Assembly (NCBI GenBank): GCA_033439265.1
Contig: JAVTVX010000017.1
Location: 13,166,001-13,230,000 of the forward strand
Direction of reading: 5' to 3'
Source: Dillenia suffruticosa
Lineage: Eukaryota > Streptophyta > Magnoliopsida > Dilleniales > Dilleniaceae
Length of the DNA stretch: 64,000 nt
How positions within the stretch are numbered: position 1 is the stretch's first letter; each line of letters begins with the position of its first letter. The position numbers and the translations under genes were made by a program. Below are positions 20,688-62,395 of the stretch, piece after piece. Below the pieces are notes generated by a model. It saw nothing but the letters and a program-made list of their open reading frames with translations. It searched no databases and had not been told where the DNA came from.

Positions 20688-22987
20688 TATCACGCCCCGA
20701 TCCTCGGATTGATCACGCGACAACCGCCGCGTCGTCTCGATACACGGGCAGAACCTCCCCGTATACCGGGACTCTGCAAGGCTATCAAATATACAATAAA
20801 TCATCGAAAGCATAAAACTCTTCAAAACGTGAAATCACATAACAATACACACGTAAGGAGCCCATCTGGCTCATCCCTGAACATTCAAACACACACATTG
20901 ACACACATCGGGGAGTGGGATCCTGTACAAGCACGCATGCGATGTGGCTATCCTAGCCATTCAGAATTCTCACCTCAATAAAGTGTATGACAAACAAGAA
21001 GTCCCAAAACATAGTCGTAAAACTTTACCAACACTTACCTGAGGAAGACAAGCCAGTATCGGTAGAATCCTAACGGTATGAGTTGTACAGAACTTCACAA
21101 AATTAGAGAAAAATATCGAAATTAAGATTTACAGTCCAAATATCCCAGTATAGATATAAACGGTTTTACAAAAATAATTGAGTAATTAAAATAATAAAGA
21201 ACAAATCAAAAAATCAGCGGATTTTATCAATACTTGCCAACAACTCGGCCAGTATCAATGAAATCCACATGATAGGGGATGTACGGTCTTCCCTTTCTAT
21301 GGTTTGAGATCTATAAATCTCCACAAGTAACCCTGTATATGCCAAATACCTATACAATCCACAAAAATACTGCACAAACTCCGTCGAGTAGTCTCCCAAC
21401 TAAGCCTCCTCTGAAAAAGGGGAAGAGAGGGGTGAGTATAAGGGTATACTCAGTGAGTGGAGTGCAATGGTGTGATTGTGTTCATAAATAAGGGGTAAAT
21501 GTGGGACAGTCAAAGCATATCTCATAAATAACAGTTCATATGCATAAAACATTTCAATAAATCACAATTTACAAAATATGCATCCATGTCAATTATCATT
21601 TCAGAAAATCTTGGGGTTCCATCGAAAAACACTTCCGTCTTAGGGAGGCCAAACCCAGAAGAAATCCCGCCAAGGGTTTTTCTATACAATGTCTCAAAAC
21701 AAGCCCCCTACCTTGGCGTTGGCTCGTACCTCACCGGGATGCACTAGATATAGTACGACTTCGGCAAAGGGAGGGACGTCTAACTCCCCTGCACATCCAA
21801 ACCCCAAACCACGCCACCCCGTCGGGTCACTTCGTGGTGGGAATATGACTATAGTCATCTGCGGCACCCTTCATTTCTAAATCAATCCAGTTCACAAGCA
21901 ATATGCCATAATTTTCCATCAAATAATCAACAATCTCATGCCAAATCAATTCATAGAGCAATATCAAATAACATATGGCACGGAATCATTTTTAAACACA
22001 ACGGATGCATTTATACTTTATAATTCAGTTCAGACAGCCTACAGTCACAAAACAATTCGCATAAATCACGTAAAATCTTTCGAAAATCATTTATAAAGCA
22101 ATTTAAAACAGGTTTCTCATTTATGAACACAATGAACCATCCACTCACCTCTAGAAAGGGTATTCACTCCCTACACCCTATCCATACTCAAGAAATCTCC
22201 TTTCAAACTCCAATGGATTGTCCTGAAGCAACCATAACAATTCTCAAGTTATTGCTCCTCTAAACTCAAGGGTTCACAAACTTTCCTAATTTTGTTTAAC
22301 CCTCATTTCTAACATTTTCTTGTTCCTATCCTCATTTTACCAATTTATCGCCATTTACATCTTTACAAAATTTATATTCACAACTCTTCTAGATTTTCTT
22401 AAATTAACATAGTCTTAGTTTTTTTCTAATTTTTCCAATTCATGGACATACATTCCAATTCTACCATATTGCAATTATTTCACAATCTTAGAGTTATTTT
22501 CAGAAATTAGCCCTTACCTGCACAGAGAAAGGAGTGCAGATTCAAACCTAGGGTTTTCGCATTTGCCTACCAAACCTTCGTGCGCTGTTCGATTTAATTC
22601 GAACCCTGCAATACTTCCTATTTGAAGCAAAATTTAGTATTTAAGTTCAATCACCAAAGGAAATTGAAATCCTAGAATATATCAATCGAAAATTCATACC
22701 ACATGTTCAGGGGATGAATTGAAATCTCGGCTAGAGTTCTCGAGGGCTTACCGATGACTGCCGAGTTGGGGTCTCTTCTGGGATTGCAGCAAGTGTCTCA
22801 GCAGAGGGCAGCATGCGAACAGGTGAGGGAGAGAAGCAGTGGGTTGTTCGCGCGCGAGGGAGAGGGGTCGCGGCTGGTGCGCGTTGGAGCGCTCGCGAGA
22901 TGGGGCTGCTCGCGGGCTGTAGCAGCACGGGAGGGAAGCCACGCACTGTGGCTGTGCAGTGCCCGCAGGAGAGAAAGAGAGAGAATC

Positions 22988-24083: not shown

Positions 24084-24239
24084 GTGAAGATGAGAGGCAA
24101 GAGTTTCTCATTTGACTTGATGGAAAAAGAGCAAGCTGTCAAACAATACAACTGCTTTGGTACAAAAGGATCGGCCATTTCAATCACGCTGTACTGCTGC
24201 TGATGAAGAAGATGGAACCTGTGTGAGGCTTACTACCAC

Positions 24240-25396
24240 TTGATGAGCATCTCGAAAGCTATGCAGCATGTCAATATCAAGCAAACTAGGTTGCCATTCT
24301 CATCGGCAGCTTGGAGAGCATCAGAGAAGTTGCAGCTGATCCATATAGATCTTTGTGGACCTATGCCAGAACCCTCATTAAAAGGAAGTAAATATTTCCT
24401 TAACCTTATTGATGACTTCTCCAGAATGTATTGGATTTACTTCTTGAGGTTTAAGTCACAGGTTGCAGAAGTTTTCCTCAAATTTAAAACATGGATAGAA
24501 AATCAAAGTGGATGTAAAATACAAGTCTTGAGATCTAATATGGAAAGGAAGAATAAAGCAATAATGGAGATGGTTCGATGTATATTGCATGATAAAGGAA
24601 TTCCAAAAAGGTTCTGGGCTGAAACTACCAATACAGCCGTGTTCTTGATGAATAGACTTCCTACCAAAGGAGTGAATGGAAAAACTCCATTTGAAGCTTG
24701 GTACGGCTCCAAACCTTCTCTTCAAAATCTAAAAGTCTTTGGTTGTGTTTGCTTCTCACATGTACCACAGGCAAAAAGAGATAAGTTTGATAGAAAAACA
24801 AAATCTTAAAGCTTACAGCATTTTTCAACTACAAACTAAGAAAATCCTTGTGAGCAGAGACGTTCATTTTGTGAAGGAGCAGCAATGGTGTTGGGAAGGA
24901 GAACAAGGAAAAGAGGTTGCAAATTATCCTCAAGTTGATAAGGAAGATGTTGATGATGAACCTATTCCAGGAACAAGACTACTCTCTGATGTTTATCAGA
25001 GATGTAACATTGCAACATATGAACCTGTTGGTTTTCATGAAGCTGAAAAGGATCCAAAATGGATGACTGCAATGTAGGAGGAAATAAATATGATTGAGAA
25101 AAATCAAACATGGAAGTTGGTTGATAGACCTTCGCATAAAAAAGTCATTGGAGTCAAGTGAGTTTTTAGAACCAAGTTGAACGCTGATGGTTTTATTAAC
25201 AAACACAAGGTTAGGCTTGTGGTGAAAGGATATGCACAAGTGCTTGGGAGTGGATTTTTCTGAAACATTTGCTCATGTTGCACATCTTGACACCATTAGA
25301 CTACTTCTGGCATTCGCTGCGTAAAAGGGTTGGACAGTGTTTCAACTAGATGTCAAATTTGCCTTCCTCAATGTTATTTGCAAAAGGGGACGAAAT
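24240..25396 (+). pseudogene. Integrase and start of RT, copia B (fossil)
   Basis: Copia integrase core: LQLIHIDLCGPMPEPSLKGS, KYFLNLIDDFSRMYWIYFLR, then FWAETTNTAVFLMNRLPTKG and TPFEAWYGSKPSLQNLKVFG. From about 25040 the RVT_2 start is seen: EAEKDPKWMTAM, then IEKNQTWKLVDRP and VFQLDVKFAFLNV. The left LTR of gypsy E begins directly after. RNase H of this element appears only at 52541. Confidence 0.85.
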
Positions 25397-26548: not shown

Positions 26549-29100
26549 TAACACCAGATAAAGAGAAAAAAAAAATTTCTGGATTAGGGCTAAAAAGCCC
26601 TGATCTCTTTTTTTCCCCATTTCTCTCTCTCTCTCTCTCTCTCCCTCTCTCCCTCTTTCTCTCTTTCTCTTCTCCTCTGCCGCGGCCTCTCCCTTCCGCC
26701 ACCTTACCCAGCCGCAGCGCGACCACGCTGCTGCGGGTGCCACCCTTCCGCGAGCACGCCACTGCGCAGAACCTTCCTCCCGCGAGCGCTACCACCTCGA
26801 GCCATCGCGAGCCTTGCGAGCGATCTCTCGCGACCCAGAGCTCAAGCCAGCGCGTGACTCCGCACAAGCAAGTGCACGACCCAGCGCTAGCTAGCGCGCG
26901 GCCCAGTGCGCTACCCAATGCGCGGCCCAGTGCGCGGCCCAGTGCGCGCCCCAGCACGAGCCAACGCATGACACCTACGCGAGCCAACGCGACCCACTGT
27001 GCAAGCGTGAGCCCTAGCCCGTGAACGGGCTAGCCCACCAACCGCGAGCCCACCAGCTGCCCAAGGCCCAGTCAGCCGCGGCCCACTACAACCCACGACC
27101 TATTGGGACCCGTGCACCCATTATCGACCCACGAGCCTATTGCGGCCCGCAAAACCCGCTACGGCTAGCAAGCCAGGCTGAGAGTCCGCAAGCCCACAGC
27201 GGGCCAGCCCATTAGCCCGCCAGCCGTGACGGCTAGCGAGCCCGCGACCGGCTTTCCCTTTCGAGGGCTCACCTGCATCTTCTGTACTGCAGATAACGAC
27301 TATATTTGGTTGAAATTCTAGGATTTGGTGTTGGAAATTTAATTGTTTCTAATATATTTGAAATTTGGAATTATTACAGGTTTTAGATCAACCCGACGGG
27401 AGAACGACAGTTAGGTTTGAAACCCGAGGAACCCTATATGAGAGAAACGCATTCACTTCACAATGTGAATAAATTTTGTTGATAAAATCCCATATTAGGG
27501 TTTTATTTGATATAAAATTTGATGATTTGATTAGATTTGTCTTTTGGAGAGTCGTTGAAAAATAGGGAGTGACCACCTCCCTAGATAAATGAGTGAAACT
27601 CTAATCTTTTGTATAAAATAGTAAAACGTGTTTTCTACTATGTTTTCGATAAAACATGCTTTAATATGCATTCTTTTGACGTATGATATTAAATTTAAAA
27701 ATCTGTTTTGTGATTTTTGGAGTGTCTTGAATTATATTTACAATTACTATGCATCCATGGTTTGAAATTAAACAATAATTGTACCATCGCTTGAAAATGT
27801 ATAAATTTCATTTTTATACCGTTCCATTGATATGTTGTTTTGAAATGAATTGATAAGACGTATTTGCACGTAAATTTAAAAATGTTTTTGATGAACTATG
27901 TGGGTTGGATGCCTACTAGTCATGCGATGATATGATTTTACTTGTGGGAAGTTGTGCCCTTGTGATACTATGAGACGTTGTGCCCTTATGATACTATGAT
28001 GATTCCGTAGCTACGAAAGGCGTTTGTAGAGGTTCGGGTTGCCCGGATACGCTTCTGCAGGAGATATCCACAAATGTCATTTATTCTAAAGGTTATAGGC
28101 GCGGCCGGTTGAACCCACGTAGGGGGAGGACGTATGTGACACCACCATCTAGCACCGGGCGGGGTCCTATACACGTTGATGAGTTAGCCCCAACGAACTC
28201 ATGGCCAATGTCGGGATAGAGAGCCTTTAAAGTCTATGCATAATAAAACCCCCGATGCGCCTGTTCTTGGTCACGCTTAACCTTTACCAGGACCATTTTT
28301 TGGCTCTCTCTGATATTACTTGATTTTAAATGGATACATATATGCTTGTTATCGTGTGATTGATTAAATGATTTCAAATTGCTAAATATATCATGTTTTG
28401 CTGCAAAATGTAAATTTTTGTTCCAAATGATATTATTTGACACTCTAATTGTTCACCTATACTATTTATGCTTGATATTATCCCCCTCACTCACTGAGTA
28501 TCTTCACATGATACTCACCCCTCCATTTTCTCTCCTCAGACAGGTTTTTTGTGATAGAGCGACATTACAAGCTCTATAGCGGATTTGGTGTTCCCGACAG
28601 TGAGATTTACTTTAAATAGAAATATGAAATCTTAATTCAGTTTTGACCCTGTGAGGTTTTGACATTGAGGTCCGTATTTGGCCGTGTATTTATTTTGGGA
28701 TGACTGTATAATTTAACTCTCATATTTCATTTGTATTGAGGCGATTGTATATATTTAATGTTACTTGGGAAAATTATTGTATATAAGATAAAAGTTAGAT
28801 CCGCTCAGTGTGGTGGCTGTTCAATCTCTAGTTGGGCATGACAGTAGAGGTCTGTGGTTAGGACTATTAGAAATTTTATAGTCTTGCATTGTCCTGGATA
28901 TTTGGCAGTGGTGTTTGTTGATTTTGGAGAGGTCGGGATGACCATTCATTTAAATTACACGTTGATTTTAATTATACAAGTTTAATTGTACAAAGAAAAC
29001 TTTCGATTTATGGGGAGATTCTACCCGATTTTCTGTAAAAATACAGTCGGCATTCAGGGACAACAGGCGGCTGTTCATGATCCCGGTTTGGGGCGTGACA
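26547..29100 (+). repeat. 5' LTR of gypsy F
   Basis: It pairs with 34410-36921. Near its start is gggctaaaaagccct (26586-26600), then a CT tract (26623-26670), then a CpG-rich block to about 27260 and AT-rich sequence after. The palindrome TTCCGTAGCTACGAA lies at 28003-28017, as in the gypsy A LTR. It ends gggcgtgaca before the primer site. Confidence 0.92.
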
Positions 29101-34409: not shown

Positions 34410-36921
34410 TGTAATACCAGATAAAGAGAAAAAAAAATTTCTGAATTAGAGCTAAAAAGCCCTAATCTTTTTTTTTCCCCATTTTTCTCTCTCTCTCTCT
34501 CTCTCCCTCTCTCCCTCTTTCTCTCTTTCTCTTCTCCTCTGCCGCAGCCTCTCCCTTCTGCCACCTCACCCAGCCGCAGCGGACCTCGCTGCCGCGGACG
34601 CCACCCTCCCGCGAGCACGCCACTGCGCAGAACCTTCCTCTTGCGACCGTTGCTGCCTCGAGCCATCGCGAGCCTTGCGCGCGATCTCCTACGAGCCAGA
34701 GCTCAAGCCAACACGCGATCCCGCGCAAGCCAGCACGCGACCCAGCGCGACCCAGTGCGCGCCCCAATACTAGCCAGCGCGCGACACCTGTGCTAGTTAG
34801 TGCGACCCTCTGTGCGAGCGTGAGCCCTAGCCCGTGAACGGGCCAACCCACCATCTGCGAGGCCACTAGTGGCCCAAGGCTCAGTCCAGCCGCGGCCCAC
34901 TGCAACCCGCGGCCTATTGCGACCCGTGCACCCATTGTCGACCCACGAGCCCATTGCAGCCCGCGAAACCCGTTGCGGCCAGCAAGCCGGGCTGAGAGCA
35001 CGCGAGCCCACCAGCGGGCCAGCCCGCCAGCCGTGATGGCCAGCGAGCCCGCGACTAACTTTCCCCTTCGAGGGCTCACCTGCATCTTCTGTACTACAAG
35101 TAACGACTATATTTGGTTAAAATTCTAGAGTTTGGTGTTAGAAATTTAGTTGTTTCTAATATATTTAAAATTTGAAAATGTTACAGGTTTTAGACCAACC
35201 CGACGGGCGAACGACAGTTAGATCTGAAACCCGAGGAACCTTAGGTGAGAGAAACGCACTCACTTCACCGTGTGAATAAATTTTGTTGATAAAATCCTTT
35301 ATTAGGGTTTTATTTGATATAAAATTTGATAATTTGATTAGGTTTGTCTTTTGGAGAGTCGTTGAAAAATAGAGAGTGACCACCCTCCCTAGATAAGTGA
35401 GTGAAACTCTAATCTCTTGCATAAAATAGTAAAACGTGTTTTTTGCCGTGTTTTCGATAAAATATGTTTTGATATGCATTCGTTTGACGTATGATATTAA
35501 ATTTAAAAATCTGTTTTGTGATTTTTGAAGTGTCTTGAATTATATTTACAATAACTATGCATCCATGGTTTGAAATGAAACAATAATTGTGCCATTGCTT
35601 GAAAATGTATAAATTTCATTTTTATACCGTTGCATTGATATGCTGTTTTGAAATGAATTGATGAGACATATTGGCACGCAAATTTAAAAATGTTTTTGAT
35701 GAATTATGTGGGTTGGATGCCTACTAGTTATGCGATGATATGATTTTACTTGTGGGACGTTGTGTCCTGGGACGTTGTGCCTTGTGATACTATGGAATGT
35801 TGTGCCCTTGTGATACCATGATGATTTCGTAGCTATGAATGGCGTTTATAGAGGTACGGGTTGCCCGGATACACTTCTGCAGGAGGTATCTACAAACGTC
35901 ATTTATTCTAAAGGCTATAGGCGCGGTCGGTTGAACCCATGTAGGAGGAGGACATGTGTGATGCCACCGTCTAGCACCGGACGGGGTCCTATACACATTG
36001 ATGAGTTAGCCCCAGCGAACTCATGGCCAATGTCTGGATAGAGAGTGTTTAAAGTCTATGCATAATAAAACCCTCGATGCGCCTGACCTTGGTCACTGTT
36101 GACCTTTGCCAGGACAATTTTTGGCTCGCTCTGATATTACTTGATTTTAAATGGATGCATATATGCTTATTATCGTGTGATTGATTAAATGATTTCAAAT
36201 TGCTAACATATCATGTTTTGCTGCAAAATGTAAATTTTTGTTCCAGATGATATTATTTGACACTCCAATTATTCACCTATACTATTTATGCTTGATATTA
36301 TCCCCCTCACTCACTGAGTATCTTCCCATGATACTCACCCTTCCATTTTCTCTCTTCAGACAGGTTTATTGTGATAGAGCGAAGTTACAGACTCTATAGC
36401 GGATTTGGTGTTCCCGACGGTGAAATTTACTTTAAATAGAAATATGAAATCTTAATTTAGTTTCGACTCTGCGAGACTTTGACATTGAGATCCGTAGTTG
36501 GTCGTGTACTTATTTTGGGATGACTGTATAATTTAACTCTCATATTTCATTTGTATTGAGGCGATTGTACATATTTAAATATTACTTGGGAAAATTATTG
36601 TATATAAGATAAAAGTTAGATCCGCTCAGTGTGGCGGCTGTTCATGCTCTAGTTGAGCATGATAGTAGAGGTCTGTGGCTAGGACTACTAGAAATTTTAT
36701 AGTCTTGCATTGTCCTGGATATTTGGCTGTGGTGTTTGTTGATTTTGGAGAGGCCGTGATGGCCATTCATTTAAATTACAAGTTGATTTTGATTATACAG
36801 GTTTAATTGTACACGGGAAACTTTCGATTTATAGGGAGTTTTTGTTCGATTTTCTGTAAAAATACAGCCGGCATCCAGGGATAACGGGCGGCTGTTCACG
36901 ATCCCTGTTTGGGGCGTGACA
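34410..36921 (+). repeat. 3' LTR of gypsy F
   Basis: It starts TGTAATACCAGATAAAGAG and ends ggggcgtgaca. It is collinear with 26547-29100: CT tract at 34488-34528, CpG-rich block to about 35070, AT-rich remainder. The palindrome seen in the other LTRs is partly decayed here at 35825. Confidence 0.92.
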
Positions 36922-40486: not shown

Positions 40487-40489
40487 ATT

Positions 40490-40503
40490 CACTACAAAAA
40501 AAG
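40490..40503 (+). repeat. CACTA terminal inverted repeat, left
   Basis: CACTACAAAAAAAG, preceded by the target duplication ATT. The exact reverse complement is at 52362-52375. Confidence 0.95.
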
Positions 40504-40529
40504 ACAAATTTTGCAACAAAATTTGGGAC

Positions 40530-41285
40530 GAAATTGGAAGAAAAATTCGTCGGAAAACACATTTGCGACGAATTTTGCAACAAATATTTTTTCGTCGCTA
40601 ATAAGTTGTCGCAAAAATTTGGGACGAAAAATTAATTATTCGTCGCAAAAATTTGCAACAAATATTTATATGTTCGAAAATTTGTCGCAAATTTGCAACG
40701 ACATTTGCGACGAAAACGTTTTCGTCGCAAAATTAGCGACAAATATTTTTTTCGTCGCTAATTTTGCGACGAAAACTTTTTCGTCGCAAAATTTGCGACG
40801 AAAAGATTTTCGTCGCAAAACTTTGCGACGAAAAATGCCTTTGTCGTTAAATTTGCGACGAAAAAAATATTCGTCGCAAATTTTGCGACGAAAAAAATAT
40901 TCGTCGCTAATTTTGCGACGAAAAAAATATTCGTCGCTAATTTTGCGACGAAAAAAAATTCGTCGCTAATTTTGCGACGAAAACTTTTTCGTCGTAAAAT
41001 TAGCGACGAACAGATATTTCGTCGCAAATTTCCAACAAAAAATTTTATTGCAAACTTTGCGACGAATAATTATTCGTTGCAAAATTCGTAGCAAAATTTA
41101 GCGACGAAGATTATTTCGTCGTAAATTTTCGGACGAATACTATTTTCGTCGCAAAATTTGCGACGAATACTATTTTGTTGCAAAATTGCGACGAATCTTT
41201 TTTCGCCCCATATTTTTGCGACGAAACAATATTTGTTGCTAAATTTGTCACGAATATTATATGTTTTACAACGAATATAAATTCT
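40530..41285. repeat. Left subterminal array of TTCGTCGC/GCGACGAA motifs
   Basis: About 750 bases hold dozens of copies of ttcgtcgc and its complement gcgacgaa, often as head-to-head pairs joined by a-t-rich spacers (for example gcgacgaaaaaaatattcg). In En/Spm, subterminal repeats bind the TNPA protein; the same role is inferred here. The right end carries the same motif at 51745-52360. Confidence 0.9.
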
Positions 41286-41557
41286 ATTATAATATTTGGA
41301 CAAAATTTACGTGCTCACCCAACCTTATCAACAATATTATCATCCAAATCATTTTTAATATAAAATTTAAACAATCTATACTCATAATTATAACTACCTA
41401 TTCAATAAGATCAAAAAATTAAACATGTAACAAGTAATCATATTTATAATATCTAACCAAAAAGCAACATCAAAACTAAATAAGTTGTCGGAATATCTAT
41501 GTTCAAGCATAAAAAAAAAAAAAAATCAATATAACAGTAACATAACAGTTCACAATC

Positions 41558-43510
41558 TCAAGTATGACCTCCACCATCACCATCATCATCATCATCATCA
41601 AAAAAATCATCACCCTCATCACCAACACCCTCATCACCATCGCAAGCATTATCAGGAGGAGAAATAAAAGGGGGAATCTGATTTGGAGCGGAGAATAACT
41701 GAAGATGCTGCATGATTAACATTTGTTGCGTGCGGACCTCGTGCAATTCTTGCGTGTGCTTTGCTTGAAGTTCACTGAATGCCTGATCTCTTTTCAGTAG
41801 CAAGTTCTTCAATTGGCTCACCTCTTCATTCAATTGATTTATTTGTGCTCTAACTGCTGGTGGTGTGGAAGCAGATAAACCGGCGTTTTTGTATGTTCTG
41901 CTCAAAGAACCTAGCCCAACTACTCTACTCCCTTTTCGTCCACCAGTCACCTCAAGCCATGTATTCATGTTATCAACAGATGGCTCAGATCCGCCAGCAT
42001 CATCACTAGCACTCGAATTTCTACATGCTAGCTCGTCATATTTCTCCTACATTGTCATGACAACAATTAAAATAAAATTATAATAACATTATAATTCAAA
42101 CACATAATGAAGGAAAATAAATAATTTTGTAACATAAATCATGACACCATATAGGATCTAAATTATGAACATTCATATTAACATTAAATAAGTTGAAATT
42201 TGAGGAAAAAAAAGTAAAAGAGAATCTGTAGCAAGTAATTCATTAGAAATCAAAGAATCAAGTCAACAATAAAAATAAACTTGGGAGAGACTAACATAAA
42301 GAAATCATCTTCATACATCGTTATGATATGCTCAACATAAAATATTCATATTAACATTGAAAATGTAGATAAAGTAATTGATAAAATTGAAATTACAAAC
42401 CTTAATTGCTCTAGCTCTCTCCCCGCTCCAAGTCTTGTCTTTTTTCTGAAATGTGCGCGTGAAAGTATCTATGAATGAAGGCTCGGTCCCTATTTCCTTT
42501 GCCTAAAATAAAAATACACTATTACAATTAATGATATACTTTAAAGTAGATAAAAAAAATTAATATTTGTATAAAATTACCAATCTATTTCTATGTTCAC
42601 CGATAGTGATCGAGCCTCCCGCATACGTCGCAGACGATTCCCCTGAATTATAAGATCGATTTTTTTTATTTTGCTCACTCCTTCGTTGACTCTCCTCCGA
42701 TTCCCAAAAATTAAGAATCCTGCCCCAATTTTGCTCGGTGATGCAGTTGGGCTTTTTTGCATGTCTCTTTGCATGATTTAAAACGTGTCGAATGTGATCG
42801 CCACATTTTTTCTTCCAAATCCTTCTTACTTCCAATTCTTCAGTCTCGTCCCAAGTGAATACTCGCTGCAATGGAAAGCAAGCAATAACTTATAAAGCTA
42901 TTAACTTCATTTCATATATAAACTGATTGGGATAAGTTACCTTAAACTCGTTCCACCATAGTTCTTTTGTTTCATCCGGAGTGCTTGTGTAAGACATCGA
43001 AGCCCCTCCCCAATGATTATTCACAATTCTATTCAGCTCGTGAATAACATGTACAGAATTTGTAAATCTATCGTAAAGTTTCAAACAAACAATGTTAAAT
43101 AAATATGATAGTTAAAAGAAGAAATTATTTCATAAATAAAAAAAATAATACATCTAAAAATTTAAAATTTAGTACTTACGAATCTCCATATGGGGCTATT
43201 ATCTCTCGATTGTCTTCTCTATCGGCATGCAACTGTTCCACCGAAGGGACTGCTGAAGGTACATTGCTAGCGATGTGTTGAGAGTGTGAAGGGCCTGCAA
43301 TAGAAGGGGGAGGCGAAGGTACGTTGCCGGCAAGGGAATGCGATTGCGAAGCTGCCGAAGCGGACTGCGATGGTGAAGAGCGTGAATTTCCATCCGAATT
43401 GCGTCTATGGCCGCCACGTCGAAACTGTCAACCATATTACAATTTAAACAAAAAAATGTAAATTGCATATTCATCATATACCTAATTAAGAATATGAATA
43501 AACTTACCAT
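41558..43510 (-). CDS. CACTA accessory protein, Plant transposase Ptta/En/Spm family (TNPA-like), six exons
   Basis: Predicted exons in reading order: 43510-43508, 43424-43180, 43067-42941, 42865-42581, 42502-42401 and 42046-41558. All have GT-AG introns and phases that add up to 417 codons with stop. The first exon is the ATG alone, directly followed by GTAAGT. The N-terminus is Arg/Ser/Pro-rich (FRRGGHRRNSDGNSRSSPSQ). The family core holds VIHELNRIVNNHWGG, TKELWWNEFK, RVFTWDETEELEVRRIWKKK, HAKKPNCITEQNWGRILNFW and EPSFIDTFTRTFQKKD. A coiled-coil (INQLNEEVSQLKNLLLKRDQ) and an acidic tail follow. TNPA-type proteins bind the subterminal repeats and assist the transposase. Exon 1 is the least certain part. 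Confidence 0.8.
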
Positions 43511-43774
43511 ATTTAATTTGATAAATTATTTCCGACGAAACAAGGTACCAATATGTGAAGAAATTTTCTTGAATGACCTATACAAAAAAAAAGATAGTAT
43601 ATTAACAAATTCAATATATAAATTTAAGAATAAGAATGTAAATAAACAAGAATTTTTTTTAAGAAATTTGCAAAAAATACGTGTCGACTAACTTACCCAC
43701 TTAAAAGAAATATATTATCATATATCACGAAAAATATATGAAATTTATTATATGAAGAGAACAAAATTTACCCG

Positions 43775-46700
43775 TCAACAAAAATCATAATCGTCATTGT
43801 CATCCTCATCGTCATCATGCGTCTCCAAATTAGACTCTTCAACATCATTTTCATCATCCTCTTCATCATCTTCATCAGAATCCTCATCCTCATCATTTGT
43901 CTCAAAATTAGATTCTTCATCATCTTCTTCATGAATTTCACTTGCATCCACATCTATCACTACTCCGCTAGGATCTCGTAACGTAGGAATATTATATTCC
44001 TCGGTCTGAACTGTATTGACAACTTGCTCTTGTTGATATGCTGTTTCTTCCCAATGTTCTTCAATTTTTTTCCGTGCTTTCGTTTTAAAAACAGCCCACC
44101 AATCAATTTTGTCACGTTTGAAACTAGGATATGAAGCATAAAATACTTGAATCGCTTGTTGTGCCAACACAAATGGTTCATATCTTTTATACAATTTTTT
44201 ATGATTTATTTCAACCAAATTAAACTGTGGATGCACTTTCATCCCTTTCACAGGGTCAAACCAGCGACACATAAATAAAACAACCCGTAATGCTGGACCA
44301 GGGTACTCTACCTCAACGATTTCATCCAACAAACCATAAAAATCATTTTGACCTCCACCATCATTGGATGACTGAACGCAAACTCCACTATTCATTGTCG
44401 TTTTGCCCACTCCATATTCTTCAGTATGAAATTTATACCCGTTTATAAAATAGGATGGCCAAGTTAGTACCATTGCTTTTGGACCCCATGACAGATGGAT
44501 TAACAATTCTTGCTGAAGTTGAGCTTGATTATCATGGACCTAAAGTTAAGTAAATATGTTAAAATATTTTAACATAAAATTTTAAATAATTGATAGTCAA
44601 CTTACATATTTTTTGAACCATGGTGCAAATTCTTCATCGCAGTAACGATCAAACTCATGTCTCGAAAGTTGAGAATATACATTTTGGAAAATTCTACCAT
44701 CAAAGGAAATAATATTTATCACACATAATGTACGACATAAGAAATATATAAAATAAAAAATATACACTCACTCGAAAAATGGTGTCACTTCTGGACAGTT
44801 CAGTAAAATATATGTGTGGGCTGCCCTCCATTCTTGATCAGTTAAATATCTACGCTTACATGATCCACTTGGTCGACCAAGGTAGTTAAAAATTGAGAAT
44901 GAATTCTCATTTGGATCAATAGAACCCTCATCATTTCTTCCCGGTCTCCGCCTCTTGCACTGAACGTGAGGCTCAAAATAATATGATGCAAACGTTGTTA
45001 CTTCCTCCACAATATATGCATTGACAATAGAGGCTTCAACACGTGCCTTATTTTTAACTTTCTTCTTCAAATGATATAGGAATCTAATTGTAATAAAAAA
45101 AAATGTTTTAGAAATTTATATGTAATGAAATTACGAAATTTATATGCCTTCATAACGAAGAAAAAAAGATGAAAACTCACCTTTCAAATGGATACATCCA
45201 TCTAAATTGGACAGGACCTCCAACTTTCGCCTCATATGGCAAGTGAACCAAAAGATGTTCCATGGAATCAAAAAATGACGGGGGAAAAATCCTTTCTAAA
45301 TTACACAAAATTATTGGGATCTCTCTCTCAAACATCTCCATGTGTGAATGTTTCAACACTGTCGAGCAAATATCATGAAGAAAAATACTTAGCTCCGTAA
45401 TGGCACCCCAAACAAAATTCGGTAAGAGTTCCTTAAAAGCAATAGGAATTAATCTTTCCATAAATATATGGCAATCATGACTTTTCAAACCAATTAACTT
45501 GCATTCCTTTAAATCGACACATCTTCCAAGATTTGAGACATAACCATCAGGAAATCTCAATGATTTCAACCATTCACAAACAAGCCGTCTCTGATCCTTA
45601 TTCAATGTATAAACTGCCTTCGGTTTTGGTCCCCTACTACTTTCATCGACATCAAGAGTGGGTCGTTTACAAATGAGTCGCATATCTTTTCTTGCATTCA
45701 AGTTATCTTTCGTTTTCCCAGTGATATCCATCACTGTATTTATCAGATTATCAAAGACATTCTTCTCGATATGCATTACATCGAGATTATGATGAACCAA
45801 CAGTGTCTTCCAATACGGTAAATCCCAAAATAAACTTCGTTTCGTCCATTTATGCGAATGTCCATAGCCATATGTTGTACAATGTGGCTCTTCAATAACA
45901 GATGGAAAGTTAATGACTCTATGCCAAATTTGTTCACCGGTTAATCTCAGTGGAGGAGGTGTTCTTTCATTTCTATTCTTAGTGAATTCATCTTTATTTC
46001 TTCTGAATTTATGATTTAACGGTAAAAATTGTCTATGGCAATCAAAATAACTCGCTTTCTTCCCATGTTTCAATCTGAATGATTTTGATCTCTCCAAACA
46101 AATTGGACATCCTAAAATCCCTGCGGTACTCCATCCTGATAACATACCATACGCAGGAAAATCATTAATGGTCCAAAGAAGAGCAGCCTTCATTACAAAC
46201 GTCTGATTAGTATGAACATCATATGTAGGAACACCTTCATCCCATAGTTGTTTCAACTCCGCAATCAATGGTTGCATGTAAACATCTATTAATTTCTTTG
46301 GATTTTGCGGGCCAGGCACAACCAATGTTAAAAACATATACGGTGCCTTCATACACATACCGGGTGGAAAATTATACGGAGTTAAGATAACTGGCCAACA
46401 TGAATAATTTCTTCCTGATTTACCAAATGGTGCAAATCCATCAGCACAAAGACCTAATCTAATATTTCGAGTCTCTCTCGCGAACTCATGATATGTTCTA
46501 TCAAAATATTTCCACGCTTCTGCATCTGAAGGATGACACATTAACCCCTCTTCTGTTTCATGATTTGCATGCCAGGTCATGTGTTTAGCTGTGGTCTCAG
46601 ATGCATAAAGTCTTTGTAACCTAGGAGTTAAAGGCAAATAAAACATTTGTCTGTATGATTTACGCTGCTGAGTACGACCCGACCTCCGAGAATTCTTGTA

Positions 46701-47549
46701 TCTACTTTGATTACAGAATTTACAAAATTCTGCTTCTTTGTCATCTCCCCAAAATAGCATACAACCATCTCTGCAAACATCTATTCTCTGTACTGGAAGA
46801 CCTAATTCTTTCACAAGCTTTTTCATACTATAGAAGTCATTGGGCATAATATGATCACGCGGCAATACTTCTCCAATAACTTGAACAAAATCATTAAAAC
46901 AATTCTCAGACACATTATGCTCTGCCTTGACATTCAACAATCTTGCGGTTAGAGATAGTTTCGTATGGCTATCACAACCAGCCCACAAAGGTTCATCTGC
47001 AGCTCTTAAGACTTCCTGAAATTGGAGAGATGATTCATTTGACAGATTTTGATCAACACCTACTACTTCTACCTCCTCCAATGGTGATGCATAACTAGTA
47101 TACCCATGTTCAAATGTTGGAACAAAACTAGAACTTGCAGCGCTTGGATCAGGAACAAAATTCGGACCCACTGCATCAATTACCATCCTCTGATACGGAT
47201 TCAATTGTTCATAATAACTCCGATCCCCACTAACTGAGAATTGTCTATTTCGTCCATACTCTTCATCAGAAATGAATGGTTCACCATGGCATGTCCAATT
47301 ATAGTAATTCGGGGTAAAACCAACTCTACAAAGATGTTCCCTAACTTTATCACACTCCAAAAATTTACCATTCCGACACCTTCTACACGGACACCTTAGC
47401 TTATTCCCATCCATAAAATCAACTTGAGTACAAGCAAAATGTAAAAATTGCTCCAACCCAAATATAAATTCATCAGTTAAACCCCGACGATCAGATAAGT
47501 TCTTCTTATACATCCAACTTCTTTCGTTCTGCATTTTCCCTGTCTCCAA
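43775..47549 (-). CDS. CACTA transposase, TNP2/TNPD type, four exons
   Basis: Exons in reading order: 47549-45181, 45083-44772, 44693-44606 and 44539-43775. All introns are GT-AG and the phases add to 1178 codons with stop. Domains: Transpos_assoc (about residues 8-90; SWMYKKNLSDRRGLTDEF, LRCPCRRCRNGKF); the TNP2 transposase core (about 250-600; LCADGFAPFG near 370, NDFPAYGMLSGWSTAG near 461, HNLDVMHIEKNVFDN near 586) with candidate catalytic acidic residues; DUF4218 (about 690-810, crossing the first intron); DUF4216 (about 930-1010; YPGPALRVVLFMCRWFDPV). The tail is strongly acidic. The enzyme cuts the CACTA ends. Its length and domain order are those of full TNP2 proteins, and no break was found. 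Confidence 0.9.
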
Positions 47550-48189
47550 ATTTAAACTTTTTGAAATATTAATAAGAATTCAAATAAGATCTACAAACAA
47601 AACTACTAAATCATCATAAGTAATATAATCAATATTTCAAACTAAAATCATATAACAATAAACAAGAACGTTTATTGTACAAAAATGAAATGATCATAAA
47701 TACAAAAATTAATTTCACAAAAATTAAATATAATAATAAATAATATTATAAACTTATTTAATATAAAACAAATTAACTAAATTATTACAATAACATTAAA
47801 TATTATAATAAAATAAAATAAATTATCAAATATTAAACATTTAACAACATTGATTATTTAACAAATCCATATAAGATTTAATATAAACTACTGAGTATTG
47901 TTAATCACAAACATCTCATAATCATTTATCACATAAAATTTACTATTAATTACATTTTAACATCATTAGAGTACAAACTAAAACAATTATCACCACCAAT
48001 TAATAACTCACCGATAGAGTCTGATATCAACACCAGTAACAGCTTCCAATCCAAATAGTCGATAACCGCAAAACCTAACACATAAAAAAAGATTTATAAA
48101 TAACTAATAAGTTAGTTATTTCAATATTATAAAAAAATCTTTTAAATAACATTTCTCACAAAATTAAATAATACAATTCAAACTACATT
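47550..48189 (-). other. AT-rich stretch upstream of the transposase ATG
   Basis: About 640 bases, very AT-rich, without a credible coding frame. It lies between the transposase start and the GC-rich block and is probably an intron or 5' untranslated sequence of the transposase transcript. No splice sites were fixed. Confidence 0.45.
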
Positions 48190-48900
48190 GCTTTTTGTAC
48201 GGGACCGGGCCCAATGGGCCGGGCCGGGCCCAATGGGCCGGGCAGGGTCCAATGGGCCGGGCCGGGTCCAATGGGCCGGGCCCAGTCCAATGGGCCACGA
48301 TGGGAAGCCAGGGGCCATCGTGGCCCATCGCGCAGCAGGGACGCAACAAGGGCTGCGCGGCACCTTCCCGCGTCGGGGCCGCGCAGCCACTGCTACCCCT
48401 TCGCGCGGCGGAGGCGCAAAAAGGGACAGCGGCCCCTTCCCGCGGAAGACGCGCAAAGGGCCCAGCGGCCCCTTCGCGCGTCTGGGCGTCGAAGGGGCTG
48501 CAGGCCCTTCGCGCAGCAGGGCCGCGCAGCCCGGCCGCGCAGCAGGGCCGCGCAGCCCGGCCGCGCAGCAGGGCCGCGCAGCCCCGCAGCGCAGCCGGGC
48601 CGCGCAGCACGCAGCTCAGCGGGGCCGCGCAGCATGGCCGCGTAGCAGGGCCACGCAGCCCGGCCGCGCAGCAGGGCAGCGCAGCCCCTGCCGCGCAGCC
48701 CGGCCGCGCAGCAGGGCAGCGCAGCCCCTGCTGCCCTGCTTCGCGGCGGAGGCGCAAAGGGGACAGCGGCCCCTTTGCGCCTCTGGGCAGCGAAGGGGCG
48801 ACGGCCCCATTGGCCGTCTCGGCAGCGAAGGGGCGACGGCCCCTTCGCGCACCTGGGCAGCGCAGGGGAGGCAGCGCCTTCGCGCACCTCGCCCTTCATG
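48190..48900 (-). promoter_or_regulatory. CpG-dense GC-rich leader block of the CACTA element
   Basis: About 700 bases of strongly GC-rich sequence made of short degenerate tandem repeats: gggccgggcccaatgggcc-type units at 48200-48300, gccgcgcagcagggccgcgc-type units at 48500-48730. All six frames stay open for long stretches, which is an effect of composition. In maize Spm the first exon, the downstream control region, is GC-rich and repetitive and its methylation switches the element. By position (upstream of TNPD, downstream of a repeat array) this block could be the equivalent. That role is inferred. Confidence 0.55.
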
Positions 48901-48920
48901 GATCTGCCATAAAAAACTCA

Positions 48921-48944
48921 GATCCGGCGGCTGGCCGCCGGATC
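48921..48944. repeat. GC-rich perfect hairpin
   Basis: Arms GATCCGGCGGC and GCCGCCGGATC, 11 bases each, separated by two bases. It sits between the GC-rich block and the GA tract on the promoter side of the transposase gene. Confidence 0.9.
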
Positions 48945-49069
48945 TGCCGTCTACGGCCAAGAGAGAGAATGAGAGAGCGAGATTACCTAACACTATCGTA
49001 GATCCGGCATCCCTTCCGCCATCCCTTCGCAGTACCCCTTCGCGGCTGCTCTTCACAAACGAGATGAAC

Positions 49070-49072
<3 letters not shown>

Positions 49073-49115
<43 letters not shown>

Positions 49116-49119
49116 GAGT
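49073..49119. repeat. (GA)n microsatellite; CT tract in transcript orientation
   Basis: An almost pure GA run. In the direction of the transposase gene it reads CT, like the CT tracts near the start of the gypsy LTRs. It could lie at or just after the transcription start, but no clear TATA box was found next to it. Confidence 0.85.
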
Positions 49120-49132
49120 GTGGGAAAAATAT

Positions 49133-49830
49133 CTTGGATTTTGCTTCAAAATCCAAGTTGTCCCAAAATTCGTCCCTGATTCAGGGACGAAATATTTTTT
49201 CGTCCCTGATTTAGGGACGAATTTTTTTTTGTCCCGAAATTCGTCCCTGATTCAGGGACGAATTTTTTTTTCGTCCCTAATTCAGGGACGAAATATTTTT
49301 TCGTCCCTGATATAGCGACGAATTTTTTTTTGTCCCGAAATTCGTCCCTGATTCAGGGACGAATTTTTTTTTCGTCCCTGATTCAGGGACGAATTTGTTT
49401 TTCGTCCCTGATTCAGGGACGAATTATTTTTTCGTCCCTGATTCAGGGACGAATTTTTTTTTCGTCCCTGATTCAGGGACGAATTTTTTTTTCGTCCCTG
49501 ATTCAGGGACGAATTTTTTTTTCGTCCCTGTTTCAGGGACGAATTTTTTTTTCGTCCCTGATTCAGGGACGAATTTTTTTTTCGTCCCTGATTCAGGGAC
49601 GAATTAATTTTTCGTCCCTGATTCCGGGACGAATTAATTTTTCGTCCCTGATTCCGGGACGAATTATTTTTTCGTCCCTGATTCAGGGACGAATTTTTTT
49701 TTCGTCCCTGATTCAGGGACGAATTTTTTTTTCGTCCCTGATTCCGGGACGAATTTATTTTTCGTCCCTGATTCCGGGACGAAATTTTTTTCCCTCCCTG
49801 AAGCCGGAACGAATATCTTTTTCGTCCCAT
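49133..49830. repeat. Palindromic 30-bp repeat array, main block (about 22 copies)
   Basis: The block opens with a perfect hairpin (arms CTTGGATTTTG and CAAAATCCAAG, 49133-49157) and the phrase tgtcccaaaattcgtcc. Then a 30-base unit repeats in exact register: TTCGTCCCTG, att, CAGGGACGAA, then a run of about seven T. The two ten-base arms are perfect inverted repeats, so each unit is a dyad. Low variation between units implies recent amplification or homogenisation. It is likely a binding platform for the element's accessory protein. Confidence 0.93.
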
Positions 49831-50264
49831 CTCAACTATATTAACATGGTTTTTCAAGTCAAAATTGAAGGAAAAATATTGAAAGCAATCAAACAATATC
49901 GAGTCTACTATTTTTGATTAACTGAAAGATATGATTTATTCTTACGCTTTCTTGTTCAAAAGCATAATACCTTAACTACCAGTTCTAATAGAGCTAATCT
50001 GATCACATATCACAAAATGTACATTGTAAAGAAGGGAATGAGAGTGAATTATATGCCTTTTGCAGTGGGAAGATTAGAGAGTTTATAGAGTGTAGATTGG
50101 AATAAATTCAGATCGTAAAGGGGCTTGAAAAAGACCCGATAAATGAAAAATAGATCTTTGTTCAAATAGATTTCTACGCATATTCTGTTTTTCAACATGG
50201 CCAAGAATTTGTCATGGGAGAGATGGTTTTTATTTTTTATTATTTTTATATGAAATATCTTCAC

Positions 50265-50455
50265 TTTTGCTTCAAAAACAAATTTGTCCCAAAATTCGTC
50301 CATAATTCTGGGACGAAATTTTTTTTCGTCCCTGATTCAGGGACGAATATTTTTTTCGTCCCTGATTCAGGGACGAAATTTTTTTTCGTCCCTGATTCAG
50401 GGACGAAATTTTTTTTCGTCCCTGATTCAGGGACCAAATTTTTTCTTCTGAAAAT
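50265..50455. repeat. Second palindromic array (about 5 copies)
   Basis: It starts with cttttgcttcaaaaac and tgtcccaaaattcgtcc, matching the head of the main block, then about five dyad units with the same TTCGTCCCTG and CAGGGACGAA arms. It looks like a shorter segmental copy of the main block. Confidence 0.9.
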
Positions 50456-50914
50456 TTTTTTTCGACCGTAATTCACCGACAAAATTATTTTTTGAGGATG
50501 ATGGAACAACGTACAACAAAAATTATCTCGCTTGATATCACAACTCAATTTTATGTTTTCTTTTATCAACGATCATTTATCGACGGAATCATATTAAATA
50601 TATTTTATTTGTTTAATTTAGTTTAAAGCTAAATTATACTAATAACAAATGCAAAACGGAACGAAAATATCGAACTTGCTTATAAATTTTTAATTTTTTC
50701 GACAAGTTATTTTCTTACTCACTAACCCTTCAATTATGTTACGAAATATAAATTTCAAATTGTAATAGTATTTTTATAAATTTTACTAAATAAACAAATT
50801 CAAAATTGAATTTAAGTTTAGTAGAGGAAATTAATGATACACTATAATGTTCCTCCCGAAGATAGACTTTAGTAGTCCACTAATTTTCCCGGAAATCATT
50901 CCCTTATATTTTGA
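50456..50914. other. AT-rich spacer between CACTA arrays
   Basis: AT-rich, no gene and no repeat recognised. The interval 49831-50264 on the other side of the second array is similar. Confidence 0.5.
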
Positions 50915-51165
50915 ATTTTGCTTCGAACACTCTTTTGTCCCAAAATTCGTCCCTAATTCTGGGACGAAAAACCTTTTCGTCCCTGAATCGGGGACGAAAT
51001 TTATTTTTCGTCCCAGAATCAGGGACAAAATATTTTTTCGTCCCTGATTCAGGGACGAAAAAGTTTTTCGTCCCTGAATCAGGGACGAAATTTTTTTTTC
51101 GTCCCTGAATCAGGGACGAAATTTTTTTTTCGTCCCTGAATCAGGGACGAAATTTTTTTTTTTTC
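50915..51165. repeat. Third palindromic array (about 8 copies)
   Basis: It opens with attttgcttcgaacac and tgtcccaaaattcgtcc, again the same head. The units mostly read TTCGTCCCTGAATCAGGGAC with the centre aat instead of att. Three blocks with the same head but different copy numbers point to segmental duplication followed by local expansion. Confidence 0.9.
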
Positions 51166-51744
51166 GCTACAATCTACGACGAAAGAATGATTTCATCGCT
51201 AAATTTTCGATAAATATATGTTTTCGTAGCAATTTATAGTAAATTTAACGAAAAATAATTATTTTCTTTACGATTTTAACAACCATACTTATGGTTTCTG
51301 ATAATTAAACTCATTCAATACACTAAATTAGAAACTAAATCGATAAATTATTAATAATATTGGCGTATTATGATATAATTATAAAAAATTATTCAATGTA
51401 TTGATTATTATTTAACAAGTATTTCTACTTTAACTCTTCATTTACTTAATCGAATATTTAAACAAATATATAAAATAAAGTTATCAGTGTTATAAATGGA
51501 AAATTTAACAGATAATGAATAAAAAATGAATATACTAATAATAATATTTTGTAACAAATAAAAAGATACTATATTATAACTCTTTTATATAAATAGACAA
51601 TGAATGAAAGATTTTATTTAATATTTTTTGAACATTTTAAGATTTTTATACGCTCTAAGTGTATAACACCGTTTTCAAATCATTTTTTATATTACAAAAT
51701 GTTTATCATACAAGAAAATGTATCTAATTACTGAAAAATAAATT
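51166..51744. other. AT-rich CACTA interior, nothing recognised
   Basis: AT-rich sequence between the third array and the right subterminal array. No gene or repeat was seen. Confidence 0.5.
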
Positions 51745-52360
51745 TTAACGACGAATTTTATCATAAATGTTATTTTTCCCACTCATTTGCAACAAAATTA
51801 GCAACAAATAATCAAATTTGTTGCGACGAATATAAATATTCGTCGCTAATTTTGCAACGAATTTAGAAATTCGTCGCAAATTTAGGGACAAATTCATTTT
51901 CGTCCCAAATTTAGCGACGAATTCAGAAGTTCGTCCCAATAATTTTGAACAAATTTTAAATTCGTCCCGAATTTAGGGACGAATTTCGTTTTCGTCCCAA
52001 ATTTAGGGACGAATTTCGTTTTCGTCCCTATTTTTGGGATGAATTTATTTTTCGTCGCAAATTTAGGGACGATTTTTTAAATTCGTCGCAAAGTTTGCGA
52101 CGAATTTTGAAATTCGTCGCAAATTTAGCGACGAAATATTTTTTCGTCCCAAATTTGCCACGAATTTTGCTTCAAATAAATTTCGTCACAAATTTGCGAC
52201 GAATTTTGTAACGAAAAAGTTTTTAGTTGCTAAATTTGCGACGAAAATATTTTTGTTGCTAAAATTATGGCTAATTTGCGACGATAACATTTTTTGTTGC
52301 TAAATTTGTTGCAGATTTGCGACGAATATGTTTCGTCGCTAAAGTTCGTCGCTAAATTCC
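51745..52360. repeat. Right subterminal array, mixed TTCGTCGC and TTCGTCCC motifs
   Basis: Dense copies of ttcgtcgc/gcgacgaa on both strands as at the left end, mixed with ttcgtccc/gggacgaa forms (51895-52075). This is the one place where the terminal and the internal motif classes occur side by side. Confidence 0.88.
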
Positions 52361-52361
52361 G

Positions 52362-52375
52362 CTTTTTTTGTAGTG
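52362..52375 (-). repeat. CACTA terminal inverted repeat, right
   Basis: Reverse complement CACTACAAAAAAAG, followed by the target duplication ATT at 52376-52378. Confidence 0.95.
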
Positions 52376-52378
52376 ATT

Positions 52379-61661: not shown

Positions 61662-62395
61662 ATGATATCGAAATCAATAATAGCAGATTTGAATAAATAT
61701 AATAAGTTTAATGGTGACAATTATGACATTTGGTGCCATAAGATATGGTATGTGCTAGAAGAGTAAGATACCTTAGAAAATATCAATCATATCATGCAAA
61801 ACCCTGGAATTAGATATACTGCTCAACAGAGAAGAGATCAAGAAGTTTACTAGGCGTGGAAGAAAAAAAAATCCACTACACGTTGCATCCTGGTTAGTTT
61901 TGTAGTTGATGATCTCATACATGAATGTGAGCAATTTTTTACTGTTCATGACATATGGGTGTACCTCAGAGAGAAATATAGAGATGCCAGTGTGAACCGT
62001 CTGAGACAGTTGACTATTAAATTTGACACATACAAAAAGAAGTCTGATCATAATATCGAACTACACTTGAAAACTATGTCAAACATGATAAGGGAATTGA
62101 AATCAGTAGGTCATGTTTTATCTGATGAGCAACAGGTTCAAGCTTTAATCCGATCCCTTCCAGACCAGTGGGACCACTTGAAGGTCAATCTGACTCATAA
62201 TGATAGTATTAAGACTTTCGCTGATACTGCTCGCCACGTAGAACTCGGAAATGAGTGGTTTGGTACTGTAAAATCAATTTTTAATGCCTTTGTAGTTGAG
62301 TCCAGTTCCTAAAAAGTTTCAGACTTTAAACGAAAGGGGAACAAGAACAAAGGCAAGAAAGGGAAGGAAATTGCGGAAGGATCTAAGAAGAACAA
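61662..62395 (+). pseudogene. gag of copia C (UBN2 type)
   Basis: SIIADLNKYNKFNGDNYDIW and WYVLEE open it, followed by DASVNRLRQLTIKFDTYKKK, NMIRELKSVGHVLSDEQQVQ and ALIRSLPDQWDHLKVNLTHN. It ends in a lysine-rich stretch. This is the standard copia gag layout. The frame is broken in places. Confidence 0.83.

What the first reader, a model, noticed from the sequence alone, without database searches (positions are those of the whole stretch)
40490..52375. A CACTA transposon that looks whole, with both genes open
Seen: perfect 14-bp inverted ends, a matching ATT duplication, a four-exon transposase whose exon lengths sum to 1178 codons, and a six-exon accessory gene summing to 417 codons. No stop or frameshift is left once canonical introns are removed. 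Known: most large plant CACTA copies are decayed or lack one gene. Inference: a recent insertion that may be autonomous, and a likely source for non-autonomous copies sharing CACTACAAAAAAAG ends and GACGAA repeats.
Basis: partly seen in the sequence, partly recalled or inferred. Interest (0 to 1): 0.78.

Follow-up and report, generated by a model that had tools for sequence, protein, structure and literature searches.

The report
Recently multiplied intact plant CACTA transposon
This is a complete CACTA-type jumping gene in a plant genome, one of a cluster of nearly identical copies that landed at separate places very recently, which makes it a good candidate for a family that can still move.

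Summary
Window 40490-52375 is an 11,886-bp CACTA (En/Spm) element with perfect 14-bp inverted ends and an ATT duplication. Both minus-strand genes are open once GT-AG introns are removed: a 1172-aa TNP2-type transposase (4 exons) and a 416-aa Transposase_24 protein (6 exons). Small corrections: 1173 codons with the stop, not 1178; 8 coding introns, not nine.

The unnamed host genome (596 Mb) could be searched. Five other copies share an identical 2354-bp first exon; each sits in different flanks with its own matched 3-bp duplication. All six keep both genes open and differ by 1-9 substitutions in 6.88 kb. Of the 30 best-matching copies whose transposase I read, 8 have both genes open and both ends perfect; the transposase is broken in 18 of 30. 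Shorter elements with the same ends exist. Five related sites read show the target uninterrupted.

So: a very recent burst of structurally complete elements, probably autonomous. The window copy is no privileged source: it alone of the 30 carries Arg943Leu, and five sisters are also structurally complete. No expression or excision data were available.

The parts
40487..40489 (.). target-site duplication ATT, left copy
   Evidence: five related sites without the element carry a single triplet (ATC) here
40490..40503 (+). 14-bp terminal inverted repeat, 3' end of the element relative to the genes
40504..41290 (.). subterminal repeats, GCGACGAA/TTCGTCGC palindromic units of about 30 bp
41558..43510 (-). 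accessory (TNPA-like) gene, coding exons 43510-43508, 43424-43180, 43067-42941, 42865-42581, 42502-42401, 42046-41558; 416 aa; Transposase_24
   Evidence: open in 6 of 6 youngest complete copies
43578..43771 (-). candidate intron joining the two genes: donor GTAAAT 3 nt after the transposase stop codon, acceptor TTGTATAG before the accessory first exon (inference)
   Evidence: sequence; donor context identical in 28 of 30 copies, GT kept in 29
43775..47534 (-). TNP2-type transposase gene, exons 47534-45181, 45083-44772, 44693-44606, 44539-43775; 1172 aa; D365, D458, C476/C479, H760/H764, E784
47540..48990 (-). candidate 5' leader exons and introns (donors at 48986 and 48011, acceptors at 48075 and at 47591 or 47540); inference
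48198..48900 (.). GC-rich block (about 75% GC) with 13-bp, 19-bp and 35-bp tandem repeats, length variable between copies
49169..49828 (.). array of 30-bp palindromic units TTCGTCCCTGATTCAGGGACGAA
50295..51161 (.). further arrays of the same palindromic units (50295-50444, 50946-51161)
51821..52361 (.). subterminal repeats at the 5' end
52362..52375 (-). 14-bp terminal inverted repeat, 5' end of the element relative to the genes
52376..52378 (.). target-site duplication ATT, right copy

Best explanation
A structurally complete CACTA (En/Spm) DNA transposon belonging to the youngest of several bursts of one family in this plant genome. Shown: complete ends, target duplication, two open genes, catalytic motifs, and seven almost identical insertions with separate target duplications (six with both genes full length; the seventh has an in-frame 588-bp deletion in the transposase). 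Inferred from the En/Spm family: the TNP2-type DDE transposase cuts at the 14-bp ends and inserts into a 3-bp staggered cut, while the Transposase_24 (TNPA-like) protein binds the TTCGTC/GACGAA palindromes near both ends and brings them together. Also inferred: both proteins come from one long primary transcript by alternative splicing. I think the youngest group supplies, or until very recently supplied, its own proteins and mobilises shorter derivatives with the same ends.
For: TIR and TSD. Genes, domains, catalytic motifs. First exon identical over 2354 bp in 6 of the 40 scored matches, window included. The five sisters have perfect 14-bp ends and matched TSDs TTA, TTC, AAA, ACT and ACC, unrelated flanks and both genes open; the six differ pairwise by 1-9 substitutions in 6.88 kb. 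Both genes open with both 14-bp ends perfect in 8 of 30 copies. TSD matched in 18 of 19 elements with both flanks read. Target without the element in 5 of 5 related sites read, out of 42 matches listed. Shorter elements with the same ends. Seventh young copy.
Against: No RNA, methylation or excision data, so autonomy is unproven. The window copy has one private missense change, Arg943Leu; two of the five sisters also carry one or two private amino-acid changes. Intact frames in very young copies say little: neutral survival is 84% at 0.03% divergence under assumed rates. Copies could have been mobilised in trans by one active sister. Leader exons and the single transcript rest on splice-like motifs only; their conservation across such young copies is weak evidence. 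One of 19 TSDs does not match (L018).
Confidence: 0.85

Rival explanations
1. The window copy is recent but functionally dead. It, and perhaps most sisters, were mobilised in trans by one active master, and all are now silenced.
For: Arg943Leu is found only in the window copy among 30. The comb-shaped tree, with 6 of 26 inner branches well supported and 11 unresolved, fits one or few masters. In Ipomoea nil most Tpn1 copies are non-autonomous and no transposase transcripts were found in the reference line (PMC5105172, passages read).
Against: Both genes are open with both ends perfect in 8 of 30 copies, including the six youngest. Residue 943 lies outside the four Pfam domains matched.
Confidence: 0.3
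2. The near-identical copies are allelic, segmental or assembly duplicates rather than separate transpositions.
For: Genome assemblies can duplicate repeats. A run of five equally oriented variant 3' ends at 25-40 kb spacing on contig C5 hints that some ends in the family did spread by duplication.
Against: The five sisters lie on five other contigs. BLAST of 150-bp flanks of the six against each other finds only matches within C31 and one 49-bp match between C31 and C15, both in repeat-motif DNA, and each copy has a different TSD.
Confidence: 0.03
3. The two genes are separate transcription units, not one alternatively spliced transcript.
For: No RNA was available. The accessory gene has its own ATG exon.
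Against: Only 264 bp separate the transposase stop codon from the accessory ATG. A donor-like GTAAAT starts 3 nt after the stop and an acceptor-like TTGTATAG precedes the accessory first exon. En-1 and Tgmt* use one transcript (PMC2613891, passages read).
Confidence: 0.25

Closest known systems
En-1/Spm of maize
   Same: CACTA ends, TNP2 transposase (PF02992) plus a second PF03004 domain, GC-rich exon 1 proposed as a regulatory site (PMC2613891, passages read); 3-bp TSD is a superfamily trait (PMC4158355, PMC4938662, passages)
   Different: Spm/En is 8.3 kb; here 11.9 kb, with TTCGTC/GACGAA palindrome arrays, and the GC-rich block is a tandem repeat of variable length. Shared transcript not tested here.
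Tgmt* of soybean (20.5 kb putative autonomous CACTA)
   Same: Both functions encoded by one element, TNP2 domain, hairpin-forming subterminal repeats (PMC2613891, passages)
   Different: Tgmt* has a TNP1 (PF03017) second domain, 24 exons, 13-bp ends with mismatches and no GC-rich exon 1; here Transposase_24 and perfect 14-bp ends
Tpn1 family / TpnA1 of Ipomoea nil
   Same: CACTA family with rare elements that carry both genes and many non-autonomous copies (PMC5105172, passages read)
   Different: There two elements with both genes were reported, one of them (TpnA1) putatively autonomous; here 8 of 30 copies read are structurally complete
LsC1 family of lettuce
   Same: High-copy CACTA family; Transposase_24/Transposase_21 gene pair with contiguous transcription found in the genome (PMC8195511, passages read)
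   Different: LsC1 itself is non-autonomous; somatic excision was observed there, not here

Membership tests
CACTA (En/Spm) superfamily | Inverted ends starting CACTA | tested here: met
   CACTACAAAAAAAG, 14 of 14 bases at both ends
CACTA (En/Spm) superfamily | 3-bp target-site duplication | tested here: met
   ATT/ATT in the window; 18 of 19 family members with both flanks read match, L018 does not; five related sites without the element
CACTA (En/Spm) superfamily | Transposase_21 (TNP2) transposase | tested here: met
   PF02992, 1.5e-82
CACTA (En/Spm) superfamily | D, D, E residues with C2C and H(3-4)H between second D and E; motif I of Transposase_21 | tested here: met
   Motif I at 358; D365, D458, C476/C479, H760/H764, E784; motif definitions from PMC1636069 and PMC12730594 (passages read); residue assignment is mine
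CACTA (En/Spm) superfamily | Arrays of subterminal repeats | tested here: met
   122 of 126 GACGAA/TTCGTC motifs of the element lie in the terminal 0.8 and 3.3 kb
Autonomous CACTA element | Both TnpD-like and TnpA-like genes open | tested here: met
Autonomous CACTA element | Transcribed, makes both proteins, excises and reinserts by itself | not testable with these tools
   No RNA, methylation or population data held
En/Spm-type expression | Both proteins from one alternatively spliced pre-mRNA | not testable with these tools
   Only splice-like motifs and the 264-bp gap
RNase H-like DDE fold | Predicted or solved fold | not tested
   Structure prediction never ran; no PDB sequence match of the exon-1 frame at E<=1

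The most novel reading that the evidence does not exclude
This plant carries a presently active, multi-copy autonomous CACTA family: six complete copies inserted within roughly the last tens of thousands of years, able to drive their own movement and that of shorter derivatives, with the GC-rich and palindromic repeat arrays changing length between nearly identical copies, perhaps as a by-product of transposition-linked repair.
Probability: 0.4. Interest if true: 0.6.

Novelty: new member of a known kind. Interest (0 to 1): 0.42.

Why it matters
Sets of complete, nearly identical autonomous-type CACTA copies are, to my knowledge, rarely reported. For comparison, the Ipomoea nil genome paper describes two Tpn1 elements with both genes, one of them putatively autonomous, beside 339 non-autonomous copies (PMC5105172, passages). 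Six sister insertions with known sites give ready markers for present-day movement and for how silencing acts on identical copies at different places. A seventh near-identical copy with an in-frame 588-bp deletion in the transposase (contig C19) may show how derivatives begin.

Tried and rejected
Allelic or assembly duplicates as the cause of the identical copies: rejected on flanks and TSDs. Solved relatives by sequence: none at E<=1 for the exon-1 frame. Structure prediction of the catalytic part: never ran because the queue was full (one search failed on my frame error). Pfam on a 36-aa piece of the target repeat, which to my eye reads like a Ty3/Gypsy reverse transcriptase (motif recalled): no match, so that naming stays unproven. 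A literature search for the start of the end sequence together with 'CACTA' found 0 papers; a search for the repeat motif returned 6,670 papers, and the 10 listed looked unrelated. Whether this family is in print is therefore unknown. Rfam and tRNA scans of the window: nothing at gathering thresholds. dN/dS of the window copy against 29 others ranged from 0.08 to 0.71: compatible with purifying selection on a master lineage plus decay of copies, but with few changes, so I do not lean on it. Substitution downstream of the stop codon looked high in the 15 older copies (7%), possibly an alignment-edge effect; not used.
Full report
WHAT WAS CHECKED. The ends, target duplication and both gene models were rebuilt from sequence. 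The inverted ends at 40490-40503 and 52362-52375 match in 14 of 14 bases. Among all 14-mers beginning CACTA in the 64-kb window this is the only perfect inverted pair 1-25 kb apart, and it is flanked by ATT on both sides. On the minus strand the transposase has coding exons 47534-45181, 45083-44772, 44693-44606 and 44539-43775 (1172 aa plus stop). The accessory gene has 43510-43508, 43424-43180, 43067-42941, 42865-42581, 42502-42401 and 42046-41558 (416 aa plus stop). All eight introns are GT-AG. Pfam finds Transpos_assoc, Transposase_21, DUF4218 and DUF4216 in the transposase and Transposase_24 in the accessory protein; DUF4218 and Transposase_24 each join into one better match across introns.

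CATALYTIC RESIDUES. Using motif descriptions in PMC1636069 and PMC12730594 (passages read), the protein carries motif I with D365, then D458, C476/C479, H760/H764 and E784. E784 is the last whole codon of exon 1. PMC4158355 (passages) reports conserved intron positions on or close to that glutamate, which independently fits the exon 1 boundary. The assignment of individual residues is mine.

THE FAMILY IN THE SAME GENOME. The host genome G000 (596 Mb, 37 contigs, unnamed) is searchable; the window is C17:13166001-13230000. The 14-bp end occurs 329 times exactly, against 19 for the reversed control. The 25-bp 5' end (up to 2 mismatches) occurs 147 times and the 3' end 167 times, controls 0. A search with exon 1 (2354 bp) scored 40 of 1154 first-look candidates; six, the window included, are identical over the full length, and all 40 are at least 97%. 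I read the whole transposase of the 30 best-scoring of these 40 (loci L009-L038). It is open with canonical splice sites in 12 of 30: the ten most similar, plus L021 and L033. The other 18 carry stops, frameshifts or both, and single ones also a lost start codon or splice donor. Of 27 stops counted in the aligned frame, 22 are C-to-T or G-to-A changes.

SIX SEPARATE RECENT INSERTIONS. For the five sisters I read both ends and the accessory gene. All have 14-of-14 ends and their own matched TSD: TTA, TTC, AAA, ACT, ACC. Their flanks are unrelated apart from repeat-motif matches. In 6.88 kb outside the GC block and terminal arrays the six differ pairwise by 1-9 substitutions, mean 4.5 or 0.065%, and the accessory gene is open in 6 of 6. 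With an assumed rate of 7e-9 per site per year (recalled, not measured here) the mean pair dates to about 46,000 years and the window copy's two private substitutions to about 42,000 (5,000-150,000) years. A seventh close relative on C19 matches the window at 99.93% over 4579 bp, has TSD GAG/GAG and lacks 588 bp of exon 1. Over 5.8 kb it differs by 8 substitutions, the deletion and one 18-bp insertion. The deletion is in frame and leaves a 976-aa open frame. Whether that shortened protein works is unknown.

HOW MANY ARE COMPLETE. I read the accessory gene in the 12 copies with an open transposase. It is open in the six youngest, L015, L018 and L016; it is broken in L017, L021 and L033. In L016 the 3' end was not found in the stretch read and the repeats stop short of it. 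That leaves 8 of 30 with both genes open and both ends perfect. L018 has non-matching flanking triplets (ATT/TAA). Counting every element with both flanks read (the window, five sisters, L015, L017, L018, L021, L033, six short elements, and one each on C19 and C26), 18 of 19 have matched TSDs. The ends of the other copies were not read.

DERIVATIVES. Pairing the first 100 listed 5' ends with the first 100 listed 3' ends (of 147 and 167) gives 38 correctly oriented pairs within 25 kb and 1 wrongly oriented; 12 of the 38 are 445 bp to 8.2 kb and 26 are 9.8-12.2 kb. Six short ones (445 to 3,026 bp) were read; all six have matched TSDs, and two of the six have a changed base in one CACTA end. One, 3,026 bp on C18, joins the left 296 bp to the right 2.8 kb at 98.5% identity, a clean internal deletion that removes both genes. 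The others match the ends at 81-97%, so they are older or more distant relatives.

EMPTY SITE. Joining 200 bp from each window flank matches related repeats continuously across the junction, up to 89% identity; 42 matches were listed, two of them the window's own flanks. Five were read: all are uninterrupted, with a single ATC where the window has ATT on both sides of the element. The target is therefore an old repeat; it reads like a decayed Ty3/Gypsy reverse transcriptase (recalled motif; a Pfam check of a 36-aa piece gave no match).

AGAINST THE 'SOURCE' CLAIM. The window copy alone has Leu at residue 943 where 29 of 29 others have Arg, plus one private silent change. The residue lies outside the Pfam domains. 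Three of the five sisters show no amino-acid change of their own in either gene and two show one or two. The window copy may work, but nothing marks it out as the source.

REPEATS. The right 3.3 kb holds arrays of a 30-bp palindromic unit (TTCGTCCCTGATTCAGGGACGAA plus a T-rich spacer); a 240-nt stretch folds far better than shuffles (z -21.6). A GC-rich block (about 75% GC, 734 bp between anchors in the window) varies in length among the youngest copies: 708, 746, 734, 714 and 793 bp in the five measurable ones. In L009, L019 and L030 the upstream anchor was not found. The 3' terminal array also differs by -30 to +238 bp between sisters. En-1 has a GC-rich exon 1 proposed as a control site (PMC2613891, passages).

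EXPRESSION, INFERRED. The transposase stop codon and the accessory ATG are 264 bp apart, with a donor-like GTAAAT 3 nt after the stop and an acceptor-like TTGTATAG before the accessory first exon. Of the leader motifs, the donor at 48011 is identical in 30 of 30 copies, the donor context at 48986 in 23 of 30, and the acceptor AG at 47591 is kept in 28 of 30. In such young copies this is weak evidence. It suggests, without proving, one alternatively spliced transcript as in En-1 and Tgmt* (PMC2613891, passages).

VERDICT. A genuine, complete, very recently multiplied CACTA element. It is ordinary in kind, unusual in how many nearly identical complete copies exist. Autonomy and present activity remain untested.

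Noticed in passing
window 13500-15319 and 21162-22975; 27214-28680 and 35021-36500: Two large LTR retrotransposons by the look of it: direct repeats 93-97% and 90-93% alike at about 7.66 and 7.81 kb spacing (scan limited to 13500-36500), with gag, RT, RNase H and integrase Pfam matches inside the first and protease, RT and weak integrase matches inside the second.
   Followed up: partly
window 24207-24806, 61854-62309: Copia-type fragments: SH3_retrovirus with a weak integrase match, and Retrotran_gag_2.
   Followed up: no
G000:C31:15625106-15637207 (L040, L045): One sister copy sits inside TTCGTC-type repeats that look like the subterminal part of another CACTA element: a nested insertion.
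   Followed up: partly
G000:C19:7896474-7907785 (L067-L069): A seventh near-identical copy with TSD GAG/GAG and an in-frame 588-bp deletion in transposase exon 1 that leaves a 976-aa open frame.
   Followed up: yes
G000:C5:6244250-6367931: Five variant 3' ends in the same orientation at 25-40 kb spacing, four of them with the same two mismatches, suggesting a tandem segmental duplication rather than transposition.
   Followed up: no
window 48198-48900: GC-rich tandem-repeat block whose length differs between copies whose coding DNA is almost identical.
   Followed up: partly
L018 (G000:C34:8498457-8510202): Complete-looking copy whose flanking triplets do not match (ATT/TAA), perhaps a later rearrangement or recombination.
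   Followed up: no
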